From Desulfocapsa sp. (GTDB lineage Bacteria; Desulfobacterota; Desulfobulbia; Desulfobulbales; Desulfocapsaceae), in NCBI GenBank assembly GCA_016765495.1, contig JAESPV010000007.1:185603-249602 (forward strand): a stretch of DNA of 64,000 nt. Reading direction: 5' to 3'. Position 1 is the stretch's first letter. The number at the start of each line of letters is the position of its first letter. The position numbers were made by a program, and so were the translations under genes. The notes under the pieces were generated by a model. That model was given only the letters and a program-made list of their open reading frames with translations. It was not told where the DNA came from and ran no database searches. This document shows positions 1 through 6,092 of the stretch, in pieces.

Positions 1-2821
1 TGAGCAGCCATCCTGCAAAACATATCCGTTTTCCCTTGTGTTGTTCAAGATTGCATGCCCGGGTACGCCCCTGCAACTTCTCTCCATACAGCAAAAGCGG
101 ATGTTCCCGACAAAGAAAGCCTAAAACATGGTACTCCCGGCGCAGTAACTCTCGCTCTTCACAGGGCTGTAACAGAGGAGCCGGTGGAAGATGTAGTCCA
201 AACAAAGAACGGGTTTTGTTTTTTTGATTTTTTGCAAGACAATGAAACTGGGACAACTCCCAGAAAAGTCTACTTCTGTTGTTATCAGGGCACACATTGT
301 CCAAGGCTCCGGCCTGAATTAACGCTCGGCTCTCATCTTTATGCGGGGAAACGCGCTGCCAGAAATCAACACTGGAGACATATTTCCCGGCCTTTCTCCT
401 TGCAACGATCCGCTCCATGGTCTCCACCGCCAATCCTTTTACAGACATCAATCCCACCCGGATACTTTTTTCTCCCTTCTCTTTTTTCCATCTGAGCTCA
501 CTTCTATTCACGCAGGGCGGCAAAACAGAGACACCAAGACGTTTTGCTTCTGAAACATAGGCAAATGTCGAATAATATCCTCCCTGATTGGAAATAACTG
601 CCGCCATAAATTCTGCCGGGTAATGGGTTTTCAGATATGCCGCCTGGTAGGAAACTCGTGCATATGATGCAGAATGCGGTTTGCAGAAAGAATAGCCATC
701 AAAACTCATCATCATCTGCCAGAGCTGCATGCGGGTTTCTTTATCCACTCCCCGCTCAGCGCATCCTTTATCAAACTCACACTGATAATCCTTTAACCGT
801 AACAGCTTGTCCTTTTTAGACATCACCTTTCGCAAACCATCTGCCCGCGCATGGCTGAAACCGGCAAGTGCCACCGCAACCCGTGACACATCTTCCTGAT
901 ACACCATAAGTCCGAATGTCTCATTCAGAACCAGTGCAAGTTGCGGATGAAGGTGCTCCCATTTGCCGCCATGGAGACGCCGAACATATTCACGCACAAA
1001 ATCATTGGCTGCCGGACGAATAATAGATGATTGAAGGACAAGCTGCTCAAAGTCTCCACTGCCCGCCTTTTTCTGAAGCAGACGCATGGCTGGACTTTCA
1101 ATATAAAAACATCCCATGGTTTTTCCGGCCGCAATAGTTGCACAGGTTTGTGCATCCTCTTCCGGCTGCCAGTATTCTTCATCAAAACTGCGACCGCTGT
1201 TTTCAATGGAGGCAATGCAATCTCTTATTACTCCAAGACTTCGATTACCAAGCAGATCTATCTTAACCAGGCCCGCCTCTTCCGCCCCATCCTTATCCCA
1301 CTGAATAATGGGGACACCTTTAGCAGCAAACTGTACCGGCACATAATCACTTATTAATCCAGGAGTAATAACCACCCCGCCCGGATGGACGGAAATATGA
1401 CGTGGAATGCCTATTAATTTTGCAGCAAGAGTGATGATTTCAGGCCAGATATCTGTAAGTGATTCTTTTGCCATAGCTGGCATCTTCTGCAAAGAAGCAA
1501 GAAGCGAGTCTCCATGAAGGCTGCAATTGCCGGAGAGTCCCCTGCTGATACGTGCAATCTCTCCAGAGGGGATGCCAAAGGCTTTGGCCGTTTCCCGTAT
1601 AGCCATACGCGTCTGAAAACGTATGATGGTCGCAACCATGGCTGCATGCCCAGCATGTTCAGCCAATACCTGCTCAAGAATAGCATTGCGCTCATCCCAG
1701 GCAAAATCAATATCTATATCTGGCGGATCTGTGCGCCCCGGATGAAGAAACCGCTCAAAATACAAATTATGTTTTACTGGGCATATATTTGTAATTTCAA
1801 GACAATAGGCGACAAGAGAAGCTGCACCGGAGCCACGCCCACATATTCTGCGAGATCGCATGGCAGTGGTGTTAAGAGATTGGTATACAATATCTCTTAC
1901 CACAAGAAAATACGAGGAAAAGCCCATGGTATCGATAACAGCGAGCTCATGTTCAAGCCGTTCAACCACAGCTTCCGAGAGGTCGGTTCCATAGCGCATA
2001 CAGGCTCCTTTATATGCTGCAATACGCAAAGAGCCCACCGCTCTGCCACCAGTTTTATTGCCAGTTTTTTGGCCGTCCCAAGGGGGCATGACAAGTCCAA
2101 AATCGGGGCCTCTAAAACTACAGCGTGCAGCAAGATGATCTGTTGCTGCCATAACTTCCGGCCACACTGCAAAACGTTCAGAGTAGACAGTGGGTGCTTC
2201 CAGGCATACAGGTGGAATATCGATTAGAGTATATGGTGTATCTTCCACACGACTGTTGCTACGAATCGCCCTTATAAGATGAAAAAGGGATGCTTCGGTT
2301 TTTTCAGCCATAACAACTGCCGGAACAGCCACAGCGGGAAAGCCATTTTGCTGCGCCCATTTGCGGAGCTTCCCTGCCTGCTCCGTTGGGCGATCACCAA
2401 GGTTTGCAACTAAATCCACATTCGAATGTTGGAGTGCTCTTAGGAGTGAGAAAGAGGAGGAGAGTACTACAAGACCATCGGAATGTTCCTTAAGCTCCTG
2501 CTCTAACAGAAACTTTTTATCACATAAGCTTTTAGTCAGCAAGTTACATAAATTACTATACCCTGTAGCATTAACAGCTAAGCAAATAACTCCCGAAGAG
2601 TCTTTGTTTTTATTTTTAACATCAGTGAGTTCTGCACCGATCACAGGAGACAGTTTATAGTATTTGCAGGCAGCAAGAAAAGACCAGAGTCCTGCAAGGG
2701 AATCCAGGTCAGTAAGTGCAAGACCGGAATAACCAAGATCTCTGGCACGCTGACAAAGCTTTCCCGGTGAACTGCATCCCTGCATCAGGGAATAATAGGA
2801 ACGTACAGATAAAGGAAACAC
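1..2821 (-). CDS. dnaE2: Error-prone DNA polymerase III alpha subunit (DnaE2/ImuC type), 3' end beyond window
   Basis: Open minus-strand frame from GTG at 2821 to the window edge, absent from the ORF track because it has no stop inside the window. Reads KLCQRARDLGYSGLALTDLDS (PHP domain), EAVVERLEHELAVIDTMG, and FLHPGRTDPPDIDIDFAWDERN (catalytic PDxDxDF motif). Confidence 0.93.
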   Translation of the reverse strand, partial: MFPLSVRSYYSLMQGCSSPGKLCQRARDLGYSGLALTDLDSLAGLWSFLAACKYYKLSPVIGAELTDVKNKNKDSSGVICLAVNATGYSNLCNLLTKSLCDKKFLLEQELKEHSDGLVVLSSSFSLLRALQHSNVDLVANLGDRPTEQAGKLRKWAQQNGFPAVAVPAVVMAEKTEASLFHLIRAIRSNSRVEDTPYTLIDIPPVCLEAPTVYSERFAVWPEVMAATDHLAARCSFRGPDFGLVMPPWDGQKTGNKTGGRAVGSLRIAAYKGACMRYGTDLSEAVVERLEHELAVIDTMGFSSYFLVVRDIVYQSLNTTAMRSRRICGRGSGAASLVAYCLEITNICPVKHNLYFERFLHPGRTDPPDIDIDFAWDERNAILEQVLAEHAGHAAMVATIIRFQTRMAIRETAKAFGIPSGEIARISRGLSGNCSLHGDSLLASLQKMPAMAKESLTDIWPEIITLAAKLIGIPRHISVHPGGVVITPGLISDYVPVQFAAKGVPIIQWDKDGAEEAGLVKIDLLGNRSLGVIRDCIASIENSGRSFDEEYWQPEEDAQTCATIAAGKTMGCFYIESPAMRLLQKKAGSGDFEQLVLQSSIIRPAANDFVREYVRRLHGGKWEHLHPQLALVLNETFGLMVYQEDVSRVAVALAGFSHARADGLRKVMSKKDKLLRLKDYQCEFDKGCAERGVDKETRMQLWQMMMSFDGYSFCKPHSASYARVSYQAAYLKTHYPAEFMAAVISNQGGYYSTFAYVSEAKRLGVSVLPPCVNRSELRWKKEKGEKSIRVGLMSVKGLAVETMERIVARRKAGKYVSSVDFWQRVSPHKDESRALIQAGALDNVCPDNNRSRLFWELSQFHCLAKNQKNKTRSLFGLHLPPAPLLQPCEERELLRREYHVLGFLCREHPLLLYGEKLQGRTRACNLEQHKGKRICFAGWLL

Positions 2822-2824
2822 GGC

Positions 2825-3997
2825 TCAGAAAGACGTTCCTAATCGAATCATTCCATTTCCGAAACGATTGCATACCCTGTCCATAGCAGATAACATTTGT
2901 TCCTGCTGCTGTTCCCGACGGCTTGCCATCACAAAAAGAAGTTTCTGACGTGATTCGGGAATAAGGCGATCACAAATCAACGTACACCTGCGAACACGGA
3001 TGCGACGTCCCCAGGCCCTGTCAAGTGCCGCAAGAGCTAAACGGCGCAACAGAAAATCATTATTACTCCCCGCCTTGTGAGTAGCCTGCCGGGTTGTCTT
3101 TGTTCCATCACTATGGCTCAGAAAAATTCCCATACGTCTCCCAAGCAGTCCTCGTTGTCGCAGGGTTCTTCCTATTTGATGGATAAGCATGGTGATAACA
3201 GACTGTACTTCTTTATAGGTTCCAGTATCCTGCGCAAAAGTATGTTCCTCTGATATTTGCAGATTCCCAGCCTTCCCCGGCAATACAGCGGTTCTATCCC
3301 GTCCACGACTTGCATCATATAAATATGCACTGCGTTTCTGAAAAGGCACCAGTAACTGCTCACGGCTCAGTTCTGCCAACTGTCCTATTCTCGACAGGTT
3401 AAAATCTGCAAGTATCCGTATCTCATCAGGTTTCAACCCAGGGAGCATGGATAAAGGCAAGGGAGCAAGAAAAGCATGCTCTTCACCCGAACCGACAATA
3501 TATTCACCAAAAGGCCGCACCATTCTCGATGCAACCTTGGATACCAGTTTATTTGAAGCAAGACTCCAGACAGGATCAAGCCCCAACTCTTTCCGCAACT
3601 GTTTACGCAAGCGCCAGGCAATGTCCGGTGGAGGCCCAAAAAGTCTGTGAGTTCCGGTAACATCCATAAAAAGATGTCCATCTTCTGCACCCGGTTCCAC
3701 AAGTGGCGTATACACCACAGCCCGTTTCACCAAGGCCATCATAGCTTTTCGATACAATGCGGGCTGCGGCATAAGGACTCGTGCCCGCCTGCAATAGTTA
3801 CGGGCAAGACTTAAGCGCATCCCCTTACGAACCCCGTCTTTATAGGCTTCTTCACTCATATCATACACAAGGGCGCGTGAAGCCTGAGCAGGGGCAACAA
3901 TAAGCGGAACATGCTTTAAAGAACTGTCTTTTATCCGCTCCACTGCCACGGCAAAATCAGTGACATTGAAATGGATAATGGCTCTCTCCTGCATCAC
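2825..3997 (-). CDS. imuB: ImuB-like Y-family DNA polymerase homolog, predicted catalytically inactive
   Basis: 390 aa. EDGHLFMDVTGTHRLFG matches the ImuB signature; canonical catalytic acidic residues are replaced. Sits directly upstream of dnaE2. Confidence 0.88.
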   Translation of the reverse strand: MMQERAIIHFNVTDFAVAVERIKDSSLKHVPLIVAPAQASRALVYDMSEEAYKDGVRKGMRLSLARNYCRRARVLMPQPALYRKAMMALVKRAVVYTPLVEPGAEDGHLFMDVTGTHRLFGPPPDIAWRLRKQLRKELGLDPVWSLASNKLVSKVASRMVRPFGEYIVGSGEEHAFLAPLPLSMLPGLKPDEIRILADFNLSRIGQLAELSREQLLVPFQKRSAYLYDASRGRDRTAVLPGKAGNLQISEEHTFAQDTGTYKEVQSVITMLIHQIGRTLRQRGLLGRRMGIFLSHSDGTKTTRQATHKAGSNNDFLLRRLALAALDRAWGRRIRVRRCTLICDRLIPESRQKLLFVMASRREQQQEQMLSAMDRVCNRFGNGMIRLGTSF

Positions 3998-4794
3998 TCT
4001 TTCTGCTCCAAAAGCTTCTGCAGAAGCTTTCCATTAGCTGGTGCCTGGGCACGCACATGGTTATTAAAAAAGACCAGCCCCTGTCTGGCCTGAGAACGCA
4101 AAGATTGCAGGTATTGCAGGTTCCACCTGTCAAGCTCCTCTCTTGAATACGAATAATCAAACTTCTGCTGCATATTCCCGGACTGCCACCCCTGTATATT
4201 ACGACCATGAAACCGAACAAAGAAAAGATCGGGATTGGTGACCACATCCAAACAGGGGAAAAGTGTTGGCATGGAAGGAGCATCCACGGTAACCAGTGTT
4301 ACCCGCCTCTCTTCAAGTTCTTTAAATACAGAATCTCTGGCCCAGGAAATATGGCGAAATTCAACAGCCAGAGGAAATCCATGCAAACCATCCAGCAAAT
4401 GTGCCAAATAATATCGGTTTTGTACGCTCCAGGTAAAATCAGGAGGCAATTGAATCAAAATAACACTCAATTGTTTTTCCAGAGGCCTGATTCCCTCCAG
4501 GTACAGTTTCAATTCCTGCTGCCAGTTCAGGCCCCGCTCGTGGGTCAGTGTTCTTGTGAGCTTTGCAGCAAAAAGAAAACTTTTTGGAGCTTTTGCAATC
4601 ATCCGACTGATAGCTGACGCGCGAACCATCTGGTACCAGGTATAGTTCAGCTCAACAATCGGGAAGACATCTGCATAGAGAGAAAGCATCCCCGGAGTTC
4701 TTGTGCCCTGAGGGTAAAACCCGCTATCCACCCATTCTGTATAGGAATAACCGCTGGTTCCGATTAAAACCGGACAAAGATTATCTGCTGGCAT
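3994..4794 (-). CDS. DUF72 (YecE-like) family protein
   Basis: 266 aa. IGTSGYSYTEWVDSGFYPQGT start plus AVEFRHISW and VRFHGRN motifs typical of DUF72. Overlaps the imuB start by 4 nt. Confidence 0.9.
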   Translation of the reverse strand: MPADNLCPVLIGTSGYSYTEWVDSGFYPQGTRTPGMLSLYADVFPIVELNYTWYQMVRASAISRMIAKAPKSFLFAAKLTRTLTHERGLNWQQELKLYLEGIRPLEKQLSVILIQLPPDFTWSVQNRYYLAHLLDGLHGFPLAVEFRHISWARDSVFKELEERRVTLVTVDAPSMPTLFPCLDVVTNPDLFFVRFHGRNIQGWQSGNMQQKFDYSYSREELDRWNLQYLQSLRSQARQGLVFFNNHVRAQAPANGKLLQKLLEQKE

Positions 4795-5407
4795 AACTTC
4801 TGATCACACCCGTCACTTTTCCCTGCACCAGAATATCAGAAAAAGGATAGCGAACAGCACTGAAGGTTTTATTTTCCGGCCGCAACTCTATGTAATCCTC
4901 TCCCAGAAAAAATCGTTTTACCGTGGCCTCTTCTCCCTGAATGAGAACAGCCACAATTTCTCCATTCTCTGCATACTGCCGAGGCTCACACACCACCAGA
5001 TCACCATCCAGTATTCCTGCATCCTGCATGGATTTTCCACAAATACGCAGGCAAAACAAATTATTGCCCGGAAAAACCGTTCTATCTACAAGTATCGACC
5101 CATCCCACTCCTGTTGTGCATACATGGGCAATCCCGCTGTTATCTGCCCGACCACGGGCAATTCCCTGACCCGGTCTTCCCTGTCTTGTTTTTCAGGTAA
5201 CTGCTGCAAAATACGGATAGAACGACTATAGCGCCCTTCACGTTCAATCACCTTTTTCCGTTCCAGCTGTCCAATAAGCTGCGCCACAGCATTACGGCTG
5301 ACACCAAGATCATCCGCAGCATCCCGCAAACTAGGTGTTTGTCCACATTCAACCAGCTTCTTCTCCAGATAATCAAAAAAATGCTGTTGTTTTCTGGTCA
5401 GTTTCAT
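4781..5407 (-). CDS. lexA: LexA-family SOS repressor
   Basis: MKLTRKQQHFFDYLEKKL HTH start, Ala-Gly cleavage site in VGQITAGLP, Ser in GKSMQDAGI and Lys in EEATVKRF. The ORF track start (5446) is probably 13 codons too early; ATG at 5407 has a GGAGAG RBS. Confidence 0.92.
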   Translation of the reverse strand: MKLTRKQQHFFDYLEKKLVECGQTPSLRDAADDLGVSRNAVAQLIGQLERKKVIEREGRYSRSIRILQQLPEKQDREDRVRELPVVGQITAGLPMYAQQEWDGSILVDRTVFPGNNLFCLRICGKSMQDAGILDGDLVVCEPRQYAENGEIVAVLIQGEEATVKRFFLGEDYIELRPENKTFSAVRYPFSDILVQGKVTGVIRSYASR

Positions 5408-5424
5408 ATTTTTCTCTCTCCGCA

Positions 5425-5480
5425 AATGTCCATGTACAATTACCATAATAGCTCAACACACCGGATAATGTCAATGTACA
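5425..5480. promoter_or_regulatory. Two copies of a putative operator, AATGTC(C/A)ATGTACA, upstream of lexA
   Basis: AATGTCCATGTACA at 5425-5438 and AATGTCAATGTACA at 5467-5480, 13/14 identical, 42 bp apart. Each contains the dyad TGT-N6-ACA. Confidence 0.55.
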
Positions 5481-6092
5481 TTTTCCGTTACACTCTCCAT
5501 TGAATGAATAATAGATTGGTTTTACTCCACAAAAAATTCCACTCTCAACTGCGTATGAAACAGATGAAAACAAAACATTGTCCAGCGGAACCTTCTTCCT
5601 GTTAACGCCCTGTATCGCAGGATATTAGATGACAATTAGCTTGTTGAGCCCTCAGAAGGCATCCTCAATCAGCTAATAAAAACAGAGATCCTCCACGGAC
5701 ACTCGTTGTAAGAGTAAAAGAACAGGGACAGGAAGTGGAAAAACAAGTTTTAGTGGTAGGCGACACCACGGCCGGAATCGCTTGTATTAAAGTGAAATTT
5801 AACGTAGCATCAGCAAAGATCCTCTCAGGATTCTATGCTATTCTTGATCAGCTCGGAGTTTCCCTTGGTGATGTTTATTAGATGTTTGTCTTGCTGGACA
5901 ACAGATCTGCATAAAAGGCCACACCGACAGCAATGGTGACGAGATCACAATCACCCCCTCAGTTATCAGCGTACCGAATCAGTCTGAAAGCATGTGACAA
6001 TCGAGGGAGGGGCAACCCCCAATGATCTTTCCGCTCCCCTCTATCAGAACATCAATTAATATCAGGAGTTGCCCTTTATTTGCTCTTTTGCT

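What the first reader, a model, noticed from the sequence alone, without database searches (positions are those of the whole stretch)
1..5480. SOS mutasome cassette with a DUF72 gene in the imuA position (lexA-DUF72-imuB-dnaE2)
Seen: four minus-strand genes tightly packed (lexA/DUF72 overlap 14 nt, DUF72/imuB overlap 4 nt ATGA, imuB stop to dnaE2 GTG gap 3 nt). Established: Pseudomonas and relatives carry lexA2-imuA-imuB-dnaE2, where ImuA is a RecA/SulA-like protein. Here there is no imuA and a DUF72 (YecE-like) protein sits in its slot. Inference: DUF72 may be a structural or functional replacement for ImuA, or a new mutasome partner, in this lineage.
Basis: partly seen in the sequence, partly recalled or inferred. 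Interest (0 to 1): 0.7.

Follow-up and report, generated by a model that had tools for sequence, protein, structure and literature searches.

The report
DUF72 gene added to ImuA-less mutasome
In a group of sulphur-metabolising bacteria (Desulfobacterota), a gene of unknown function (DUF72, a TIM-barrel protein that looks like a working enzyme) is built into the damage-induced operon of an error-prone DNA polymerase; it is probably not a stand-in for the missing ImuA protein, because the polymerase's partner protein keeps a RecA-docking tail and related operons exist with neither gene.

Summary
The gene order lexA-DUF72-imuB-like-dnaE2 is real, and so is the absence of imuA. By my tally of the genome tables, 60 of 62 family genomes with the imuB-like gene have DUF72 directly upstream. 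DUF72 joined once and was lost about three times. A Desulfosarcina plasmid carries the same cassette. Tandem LexA-type operators, one containing the -35 box, indicate an autoregulated SOS operon.

The "ImuA replacement" reading is not supported. The "ImuB" is a catalytically dead Y-family protein that ends in a RecA-NT motif and lacks the ImuB-C domain. This matches the published DnaE2B-iPolY-RecA type of mutasome, in which RecA is predicted to fill ImuA's place. Sister cassettes lexA-iPolY-dnaE2 have neither imuA nor DUF72, so there is no vacated imuA slot. DUF72 is a TIM barrel that keeps the residues conserved across its family and adds clade-specific ones beside the likely active site. It looks like an enzyme, not a RecA-like scaffold.

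Best reading: a DnaE2B-iPolY-RecA variant with a co-induced accessory enzyme, probably acting on damaged nucleic acid. That activity is inferred and untested. I found no earlier description of this link; a DUF72-PolB2 link is published. New variant of a known kind.

The parts
1..2821 (-). dnaE2-like C-family polymerase (DnaE2B-like), GTG start at 2821; continues about 295 bases beyond the window start, 1038 aa in all; polymerase motifs PDIDIDF and KIDLLG intact
   Evidence: Scores 542 bits against NCBI's error-prone polymerase model (cut-off 939), against 1381 for a canonical Rhizobium DnaE2.
2825..3997 (-). imuB-like gene = catalytically inactive Y-family protein (iPolY), 389 aa (ATG at 3994) or 390 aa (GTG at 3997)
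   Evidence: Pfam IMS and IMS_C; Asp8 to Asn and Asp-Glu pair disrupted by Gly-His relative to E. coli Pol IV; model pLDDT 88.
2933..2947 (-). Beta-clamp-type motif position in iPolY (QKLLF here; QLSLF in many relatives)
   Evidence: C-termini of homologues; Q350 and L353 invariant, F354 nearly so. Function by resemblance only.
2831..2908 (-). RecA-NT-like motif at the iPolY C-terminus (predicted RecA docking tail)
   Evidence: hhalign of the C-terminal profile against RecA N-termini: probability 81.7, E 1.1e-5; 40 column-shuffled decoys at most 0.7; predicted helix 359-378.
3994..4794 (-). DUF72 gene, 266 aa, TIM barrel
   Evidence: PF01904 E 1.4e-56; model pLDDT 94.7; TM 0.87 to TM1631/1VPQ; 30 residues conserved in operon and non-operon DUF72s.
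4781..5407 (-). lexA, 208 aa from the proposed start at 5407 (longest ORF reaches 5446); only LexA gene over the cut-off in this genome
   Evidence: TIGR00498 162 bits; single copy; start from operator and ribosome-binding site.
5425..5440 (-). LexA-type operator 2, ATTGTACATGGACATT, just downstream of the -10 box
   Evidence: LexA binding not tested.
5445..5474 (-). Sigma-70-like promoter TTGACA-18-TATTAT, -35 box inside operator 1
   Evidence: 11 of 12 consensus matches.
5467..5482 (-). LexA-type operator 1, AATGTACATTGACATT
   Evidence: With operator 2 the only sites of at most 1 mismatch in the genome; such sites near lexA or iPolY in 31 of 67 cassette loci and nowhere else in 789 kb.

Best explanation
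This is an SOS-type, LexA-autoregulated operon for a DnaE2B-iPolY-RecA mutasome, with a DUF72 gene added in one clade. When the SOS response removes LexA from the two operators, the whole operon is transcribed. The dead Y-family protein acts as an adaptor: its C-terminal RecA-NT tail docks onto RecA at damaged single-stranded DNA (the place ImuA takes elsewhere) and it brings in the active DnaE2-type polymerase, which copies past the lesion. DUF72 is not the ImuA substitute. It is an intact TIM-barrel enzyme made in the same response, most likely one that processes damaged DNA or nucleotides alongside the polymerase. Shown: gene order and conservation, operators and promoter by sequence, loss of the Y-family catalytic residues, the RecA-NT motif, absence of imuA, single gain and repeated loss of DUF72, DUF72 fold and conserved residues. 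Inferred: LexA and RecA binding, polymerase recruitment, and the enzymatic role of DUF72 (that last step about 0.4 on its own).
For: RecA-NT motif and dead Y-family site; no ImuA in the genome, with a positive control; no ImuB-C extension; polymerase separate from DnaE2A on the tree; sister cassettes lexA-iPolY-dnaE2 without imuA or DUF72, and three losses of DUF72 inside the clade; operators and promoter; DUF72 TIM barrel with family residues intact and operon-specific residues W53, Q55, L79, T80 beside invariant Y54 and K78; co-inheritance of all four genes. Published: DnaE2B-iPolY-RecA modules (PMC12926913); DUF72 enriched near polB2 (PMC11791011); TM1631 predicted to bind DNA (PMC3828134).
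Against: No interaction or activity was measured and no complex was modelled. The DnaE2B assignment rests on a tree with long branches. The RecA-NT motif is weak by single-sequence search (36 of 71 proteins give a hit in the tail, at low scores). DUF72 does not show the Endo IV or UVDE relationship among its best structural matches, so a DNA substrate is a guess from context. The near-constant presence of DUF72 in 60 of 62 family genomes would also suit a complex member.
Confidence: 0.62

Rival explanations
1. DUF72 replaces ImuA: it is a structural subunit that bridges iPolY and DnaE2.
For: imuA is absent and DUF72 sits directly upstream of the imuB-like gene in nearly all family genomes; DUF72 and iPolY distances correlate (r 0.893).
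Against: iPolY keeps a RecA-NT tail; lexA-iPolY-dnaE2 cassettes exist without imuA and DUF72, as sister group and as later losses; DUF72 is a TIM barrel with an intact conserved centre, not a RecA fold. All operon genes correlate equally well, as expected from shared inheritance.
Confidence: 0.08
2. DUF72 is an additional physical member of the mutasome, for example a lesion-recognising or strand-cutting enzyme held by iPolY or DnaE2, with RecA still in the ImuA place.
For: Strict position and co-inheritance in the clade; 22 operon-specific conserved residues; complete cassette kept together on a plasmid.
Against: Three lineages keep iPolY and the polymerase without DUF72; in Desulfogranum japonicum other genes separate lexA-DUF72 from iPolY-dnaE2; the specific residues flank the likely active site, which fits substrate choice as well as an interface. 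No complex was modelled.
Confidence: 0.2
3. DUF72 has a function unrelated to DNA damage and merely shares the LexA promoter.
For: Other DUF72 genes lie next to unrelated genes, for example 2-oxoacid:ferredoxin oxidoreductase-like genes in Kryptonia; DUF72 is widespread in genomes without this cassette.
Against: The position is conserved over several families; DUF72 also follows mutS in a Thermotogaceae genome and overlaps a PcrA/UvrD-like helicase gene in Thermosipho and is enriched near polB2 (PMC11791011).
Confidence: 0.15

Closest known systems
DnaE2B-iPolY-RecA putative mutasome (gbDinB2 type, Geobacter bemidjiensis; PMC12926913, PMC6511836)
   Same: Inactive Y-family protein with RecA-NT motif and no ImuB-C, DnaE2-type polymerase outside the DnaE2A group, no ImuA; often with lexA.
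   Different: A DUF72 gene lies between lexA and iPolY in this clade; the papers' main texts do not name DUF72 in these modules (no occurrence in PMC12926913).
lexA-imuA-imuB-dnaE2 cassette (ImuA-ImuB-DnaE2 mutasome)
   Same: LexA-controlled operon with a dead Y-family protein and a second C-family polymerase.
   Different: No ImuA, no ImuB-C domain, polymerase far below NCBI's DnaE2 cut-off.
PolB2 operons with a DUF72 neighbour (PMC11791011)
   Same: DUF72 gene near an error-prone polymerase under damage control.
   Different: B-family polymerase with iRadA and PPB2; unrelated polymerase and accessory proteins.
TM1631 (PDB 1VPQ), DUF72 of Thermotoga maritima
   Same: Closest solved structure: about 34% identity, TM 0.87, same TIM barrel.
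   Different: The 22 operon-specific residues are absent from most non-operon DUF72s (TM1631 itself was not scored position by position).

Membership tests
ImuA-ImuB-DnaE2 mutasome | ImuA encoded in the genome | tested here: not met
   Only RecA found by the ImuA model; Rhizobium ImuA finds nothing; positive control passes.
ImuA-ImuB-DnaE2 mutasome | ImuB with C-terminal ImuB-C domain | tested here: not met
   389-390 aa, ends at the RecA-NT motif; no barrel after the little finger in the model.
ImuA-ImuB-DnaE2 mutasome | Polymerase of the DnaE2A group | tested here: not met
   542 bits against a cut-off of 939; apart from Rhizobium and Streptomyces DnaE2 on the tree, with long branches.
DnaE2B-iPolY-RecA mutasome | Y-family protein with disrupted active site | tested here: met
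   Asp8 replaced in all but one of 67 homologues; Gly and His at the Asp-Glu pair in 67 and 65.
DnaE2B-iPolY-RecA mutasome | RecA-NT motif in the Y-family tail | tested here: met
   hhalign probability 81.7, E 1.1e-5, decoys at most 0.7.
DnaE2B-iPolY-RecA mutasome | Genome without ImuA | tested here: met
DnaE2B-iPolY-RecA mutasome | No standalone ImuB-C protein | not tested
   No ImuB-C profile was searched in the genome.
DnaE2B-iPolY-RecA mutasome | Polymerase in the DnaE2B clade | tested here: inconclusive
   Groups with a Chryseobacterium DnaE next to a PolY, away from DnaE2A and DnaE1, but on a very long branch; the published DnaE2 tree was not reproduced.
DnaE2B-iPolY-RecA mutasome | RecA binds the iPolY tail | not testable with these tools
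   Needs multimer modelling or binding assays.
DUF72 (PF01904) | Pfam model over its cut-off and the DUF72 TIM-barrel fold | tested here: met
   192 bits, cut-off 25.3; four DUF72 structures are the top matches.
Endonuclease IV / UVDE-like nucleases | Structural kinship and the His-rich metal site | tested here: inconclusive
   Neither appears by name among the 50 best structural matches; only three His (85, 148, 196) are conserved in both DUF72 groups. Metal ligands were not mapped in three dimensions.
LexA/SOS operon | LexA-type operator at the operon promoter | tested here: met
   Two sites at the promoter, recurring in relatives. That LexA binds them, and that damage induces the operon, was not tested.

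The most novel reading that the evidence does not exclude
DUF72 is an unrecognised SOS-induced enzyme that processes damaged DNA or nucleotides and was recruited at least twice to error-prone polymerase operons: here to DnaE2B-iPolY-RecA cassettes and, as published, near PolB2. These cassettes would give a functional handle on a widespread family of unknown function.
Probability: 0.35. Interest if true: 0.75.

Novelty: new variant of a known kind. Interest (0 to 1): 0.52.

Why it matters
DUF72 (YecE/TM1631) occurs in bacteria and archaea and has solved structures but no assigned function. A clade-wide, LexA-controlled operon that links it to a translesion polymerase, together with the published link to PolB2, turns its function into a testable DNA-damage question. 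It also adds a lineage to the ImuA-less mutasomes, in which RecA is predicted to do ImuA's job.

Tried and rejected
ImuA elsewhere in the genome: searched with the NCBI model and with a real ImuA; only RecA was found.

A paper returned for DUF72 with imuB and dnaE2 (PMC5720831) concerns Rv0004. I take its 'DUF72' counts to be a longer DUF number caught by word-start matching; I did not open it.

Desulfocapsa MC-01 (L002), where DUF72 stands alone, first looked like proof of an independent function. On inspection the cassette is decaying: lexA is truncated, iPolY and dnaE2 are gone, and DUF72 dN/dS is 0.19 against 0.05-0.07. I treat it as ambiguous.

A wider LexA regulon: 2-mismatch operator hits in the genome (33 in all, both strands) are not far above the reversed-pattern control (19), so none was claimed.

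Membership of Endo IV or UVDE was considered and not adopted.

Viral contigs hold seven DUF72 relatives of 39% identity or less; their neighbours were not examined.

A first hmmsearch for RecA-NT gave weak single-sequence scores; the profile-profile test was needed.

Full report
What is there. The window comes from a 3.8-Mb Desulfocapsa-like genome (closest named loci are Desulfocapsa). On the minus strand lie lexA, a DUF72 gene, a Y-family gene and a C-family polymerase gene, packed as described. The polymerase gene runs about 295 bases beyond the window and encodes 1038 aa with intact PDIDIDF and KIDLLG motifs. lexA probably starts at 5407, because an operator occupies the first codons of the longer ORF and a ribosome-binding site precedes the inner ATG. 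The DUF72/Y-family junction is TGATG or GTGA, not ATGA.

Regulation. Two 16-bp sites, AATGTACATTGACATT (5467-5482) and ATTGTACATGGACATT (5425-5440), lie at a TTGACA-18-TATTAT promoter whose -35 box is inside the first site. No other place in the genome has a site with one mismatch or fewer. Among 67 cassette loci, 31 have such a site near the start of lexA (or of iPolY where lexA is missing), and none has one elsewhere in 789 kb. These 31 are close relatives of the window; more distant cassettes must use other operators. The genome has one LexA gene over the model's cut-off. recA has no such site in the stretch I read upstream of it. That LexA binds these sites is inferred.

The 'ImuB' is an inactive PolY. 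Against E. coli Pol IV, catalytic Asp8 is Asn, and the Asp-Glu pair is disrupted by Gly-His with a one-residue insertion. Among 67 homologues Asp8 survives once, and the Gly and the His are present in 67 and 65. The protein ends at residue 389-390, against 503 and 507 in the Rhizobium and Streptomyces proteins. The model shows a Y-family core, a short helix at the clamp-motif position and a final helix, with no domain after it. The tail aligns with the N-termini of the family's RecA proteins (QQEQMLSAMDRVCNRFGNGMI-RLGTS against KEGSVENALNQIHRQFGKGSIMRLGSA) at hhalign probability 81.7 and E 1.1e-5; forty column-shuffled decoys reached at most 0.7. Published work names this motif as the element that docks Y-family proteins on RecA or ImuA and describes DnaE2B-iPolY-RecA modules in genomes without ImuA (PMC6511836; PMC12926913).

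No imuA, and no imuA slot. The ImuA model finds only RecA in this genome, and in the family only hits below its cut-off, in frames of RecA or RadA length apart from a few cut by contig ends. It scores a Rhizobium ImuA at E 2e-14, and that ImuA finds nothing here. Elsewhere in the phylum, eight cassettes are lexA-iPolY-dnaE2 without DUF72; the three whose gap I inspected hold no imuA between lexA and iPolY. On the iPolY tree these eight form the sister group, and all DUF72 cassettes lie in one clade of 59 rows (100*). Inside it DUF72 is missing in G064 (same family), G222 (lexA-iPolY-dnaE2) and family f15 (iPolY-dnaE2 without lexA). With the eight as outgroup, the simplest history is one gain and three losses, added to a cassette that already lacked imuA. 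The tree does not by itself fix the root.

Extent. By my hand tally, 62 of 97 family genomes have this iPolY, and in 60 DUF72 is directly upstream. The two others are G036, where the iPolY hit is cut at a contig end, and G064. Among the named loci, 46 of 47 DUF72s of 53% identity or more sit in the cassette or in a contig-end fragment of it; none of the 33 more distant ones has lexA, iPolY or dnaE2 nearby. Operon DUF72s form one group (100*), and their distances correlate with those of iPolY at r 0.893 (null maximum 0.298), as do those of the other genes. Desulfosarcina ovata plasmid Do28_1 (typed mobilizable, MOBQ) carries the complete cassette, so it can probably move.

DUF72. The model is a confident TIM barrel (pLDDT 94.7, TM 0.87 to 1VPQ). 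The 50 best structural matches name no RecA-like protein and no Endo IV or UVDE. Thirty residues are kept in both operon and non-operon DUF72s, and 22 more are specific to operon members; W53 and Q55 flank conserved Y54, and L79 and T80 follow conserved K78, near the ends of barrel strands where TIM-barrel active sites lie. I read this as a working enzyme with its own substrate. Hints that it acts on DNA are a computational prediction for TM1631 (PMC3828134), enrichment near polB2 (PMC11791011), and single cases behind mutS and overlapping a PcrA/UvrD-like helicase gene. None is a measured activity.

Separability. The polymerase part persists without DUF72 in three lineages. In Desulfogranum japonicum, genes that look like potassium-transport genes separate lexA-DUF72 from iPolY-dnaE2. 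In Desulfocapsa MC-01 the cassette has decayed to an intact DUF72 with raised dN/dS, which is ambiguous. Together these suit an accessory enzyme better than an obligate structural subunit, though the near-constant presence of DUF72 in the family leaves a complex member possible.

Verdict. The ImuA-replacement idea is not supported, because RecA is the likelier occupant of that role. What remains of interest is a clade-wide SOS-type operon that couples a widespread protein family of unknown function to an error-prone polymerase. Searches of the paper library for DUF72 with imuB and dnaE2, with LexA and operon, and under its other names returned no earlier description; supplementary files and most subscription journals were not covered.

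Noticed in passing
L183 (NZ_AP021877.1, 59962-65737): A mobilizable-typed Desulfosarcina ovata plasmid carries a complete lexA-DUF72-iPolY-dnaE2 cassette.
   Followed up: partly
L002, 3134-4085: In Desulfocapsa sp. MC-01 the cassette is decayed: lexA truncated, iPolY and dnaE2 gone, DUF72 ORF intact with dN/dS 0.19.
   Followed up: yes
L053, 1753-4962: In a Thermotogaceae MAG a DUF72 gene follows mutS by 15 nt.
   Followed up: partly
L062, 6085-8747: In a Thermosipho MAG a DUF72 gene overlaps a PcrA/UvrD-like helicase gene by 4 nt.
   Followed up: partly
L039, 8796-12182: In Desulfogranum japonicum, opposite-strand genes that look like potassium-transport genes lie between lexA-DUF72 and iPolY-dnaE2.
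   Followed up: no
window 2933-2947: The clamp-type motif QLSLF of relatives is degenerate in the window's Desulfocapsa group (QQTLF, QKLLF), so clamp binding may be weaker or supplied by another subunit there.
   Followed up: no
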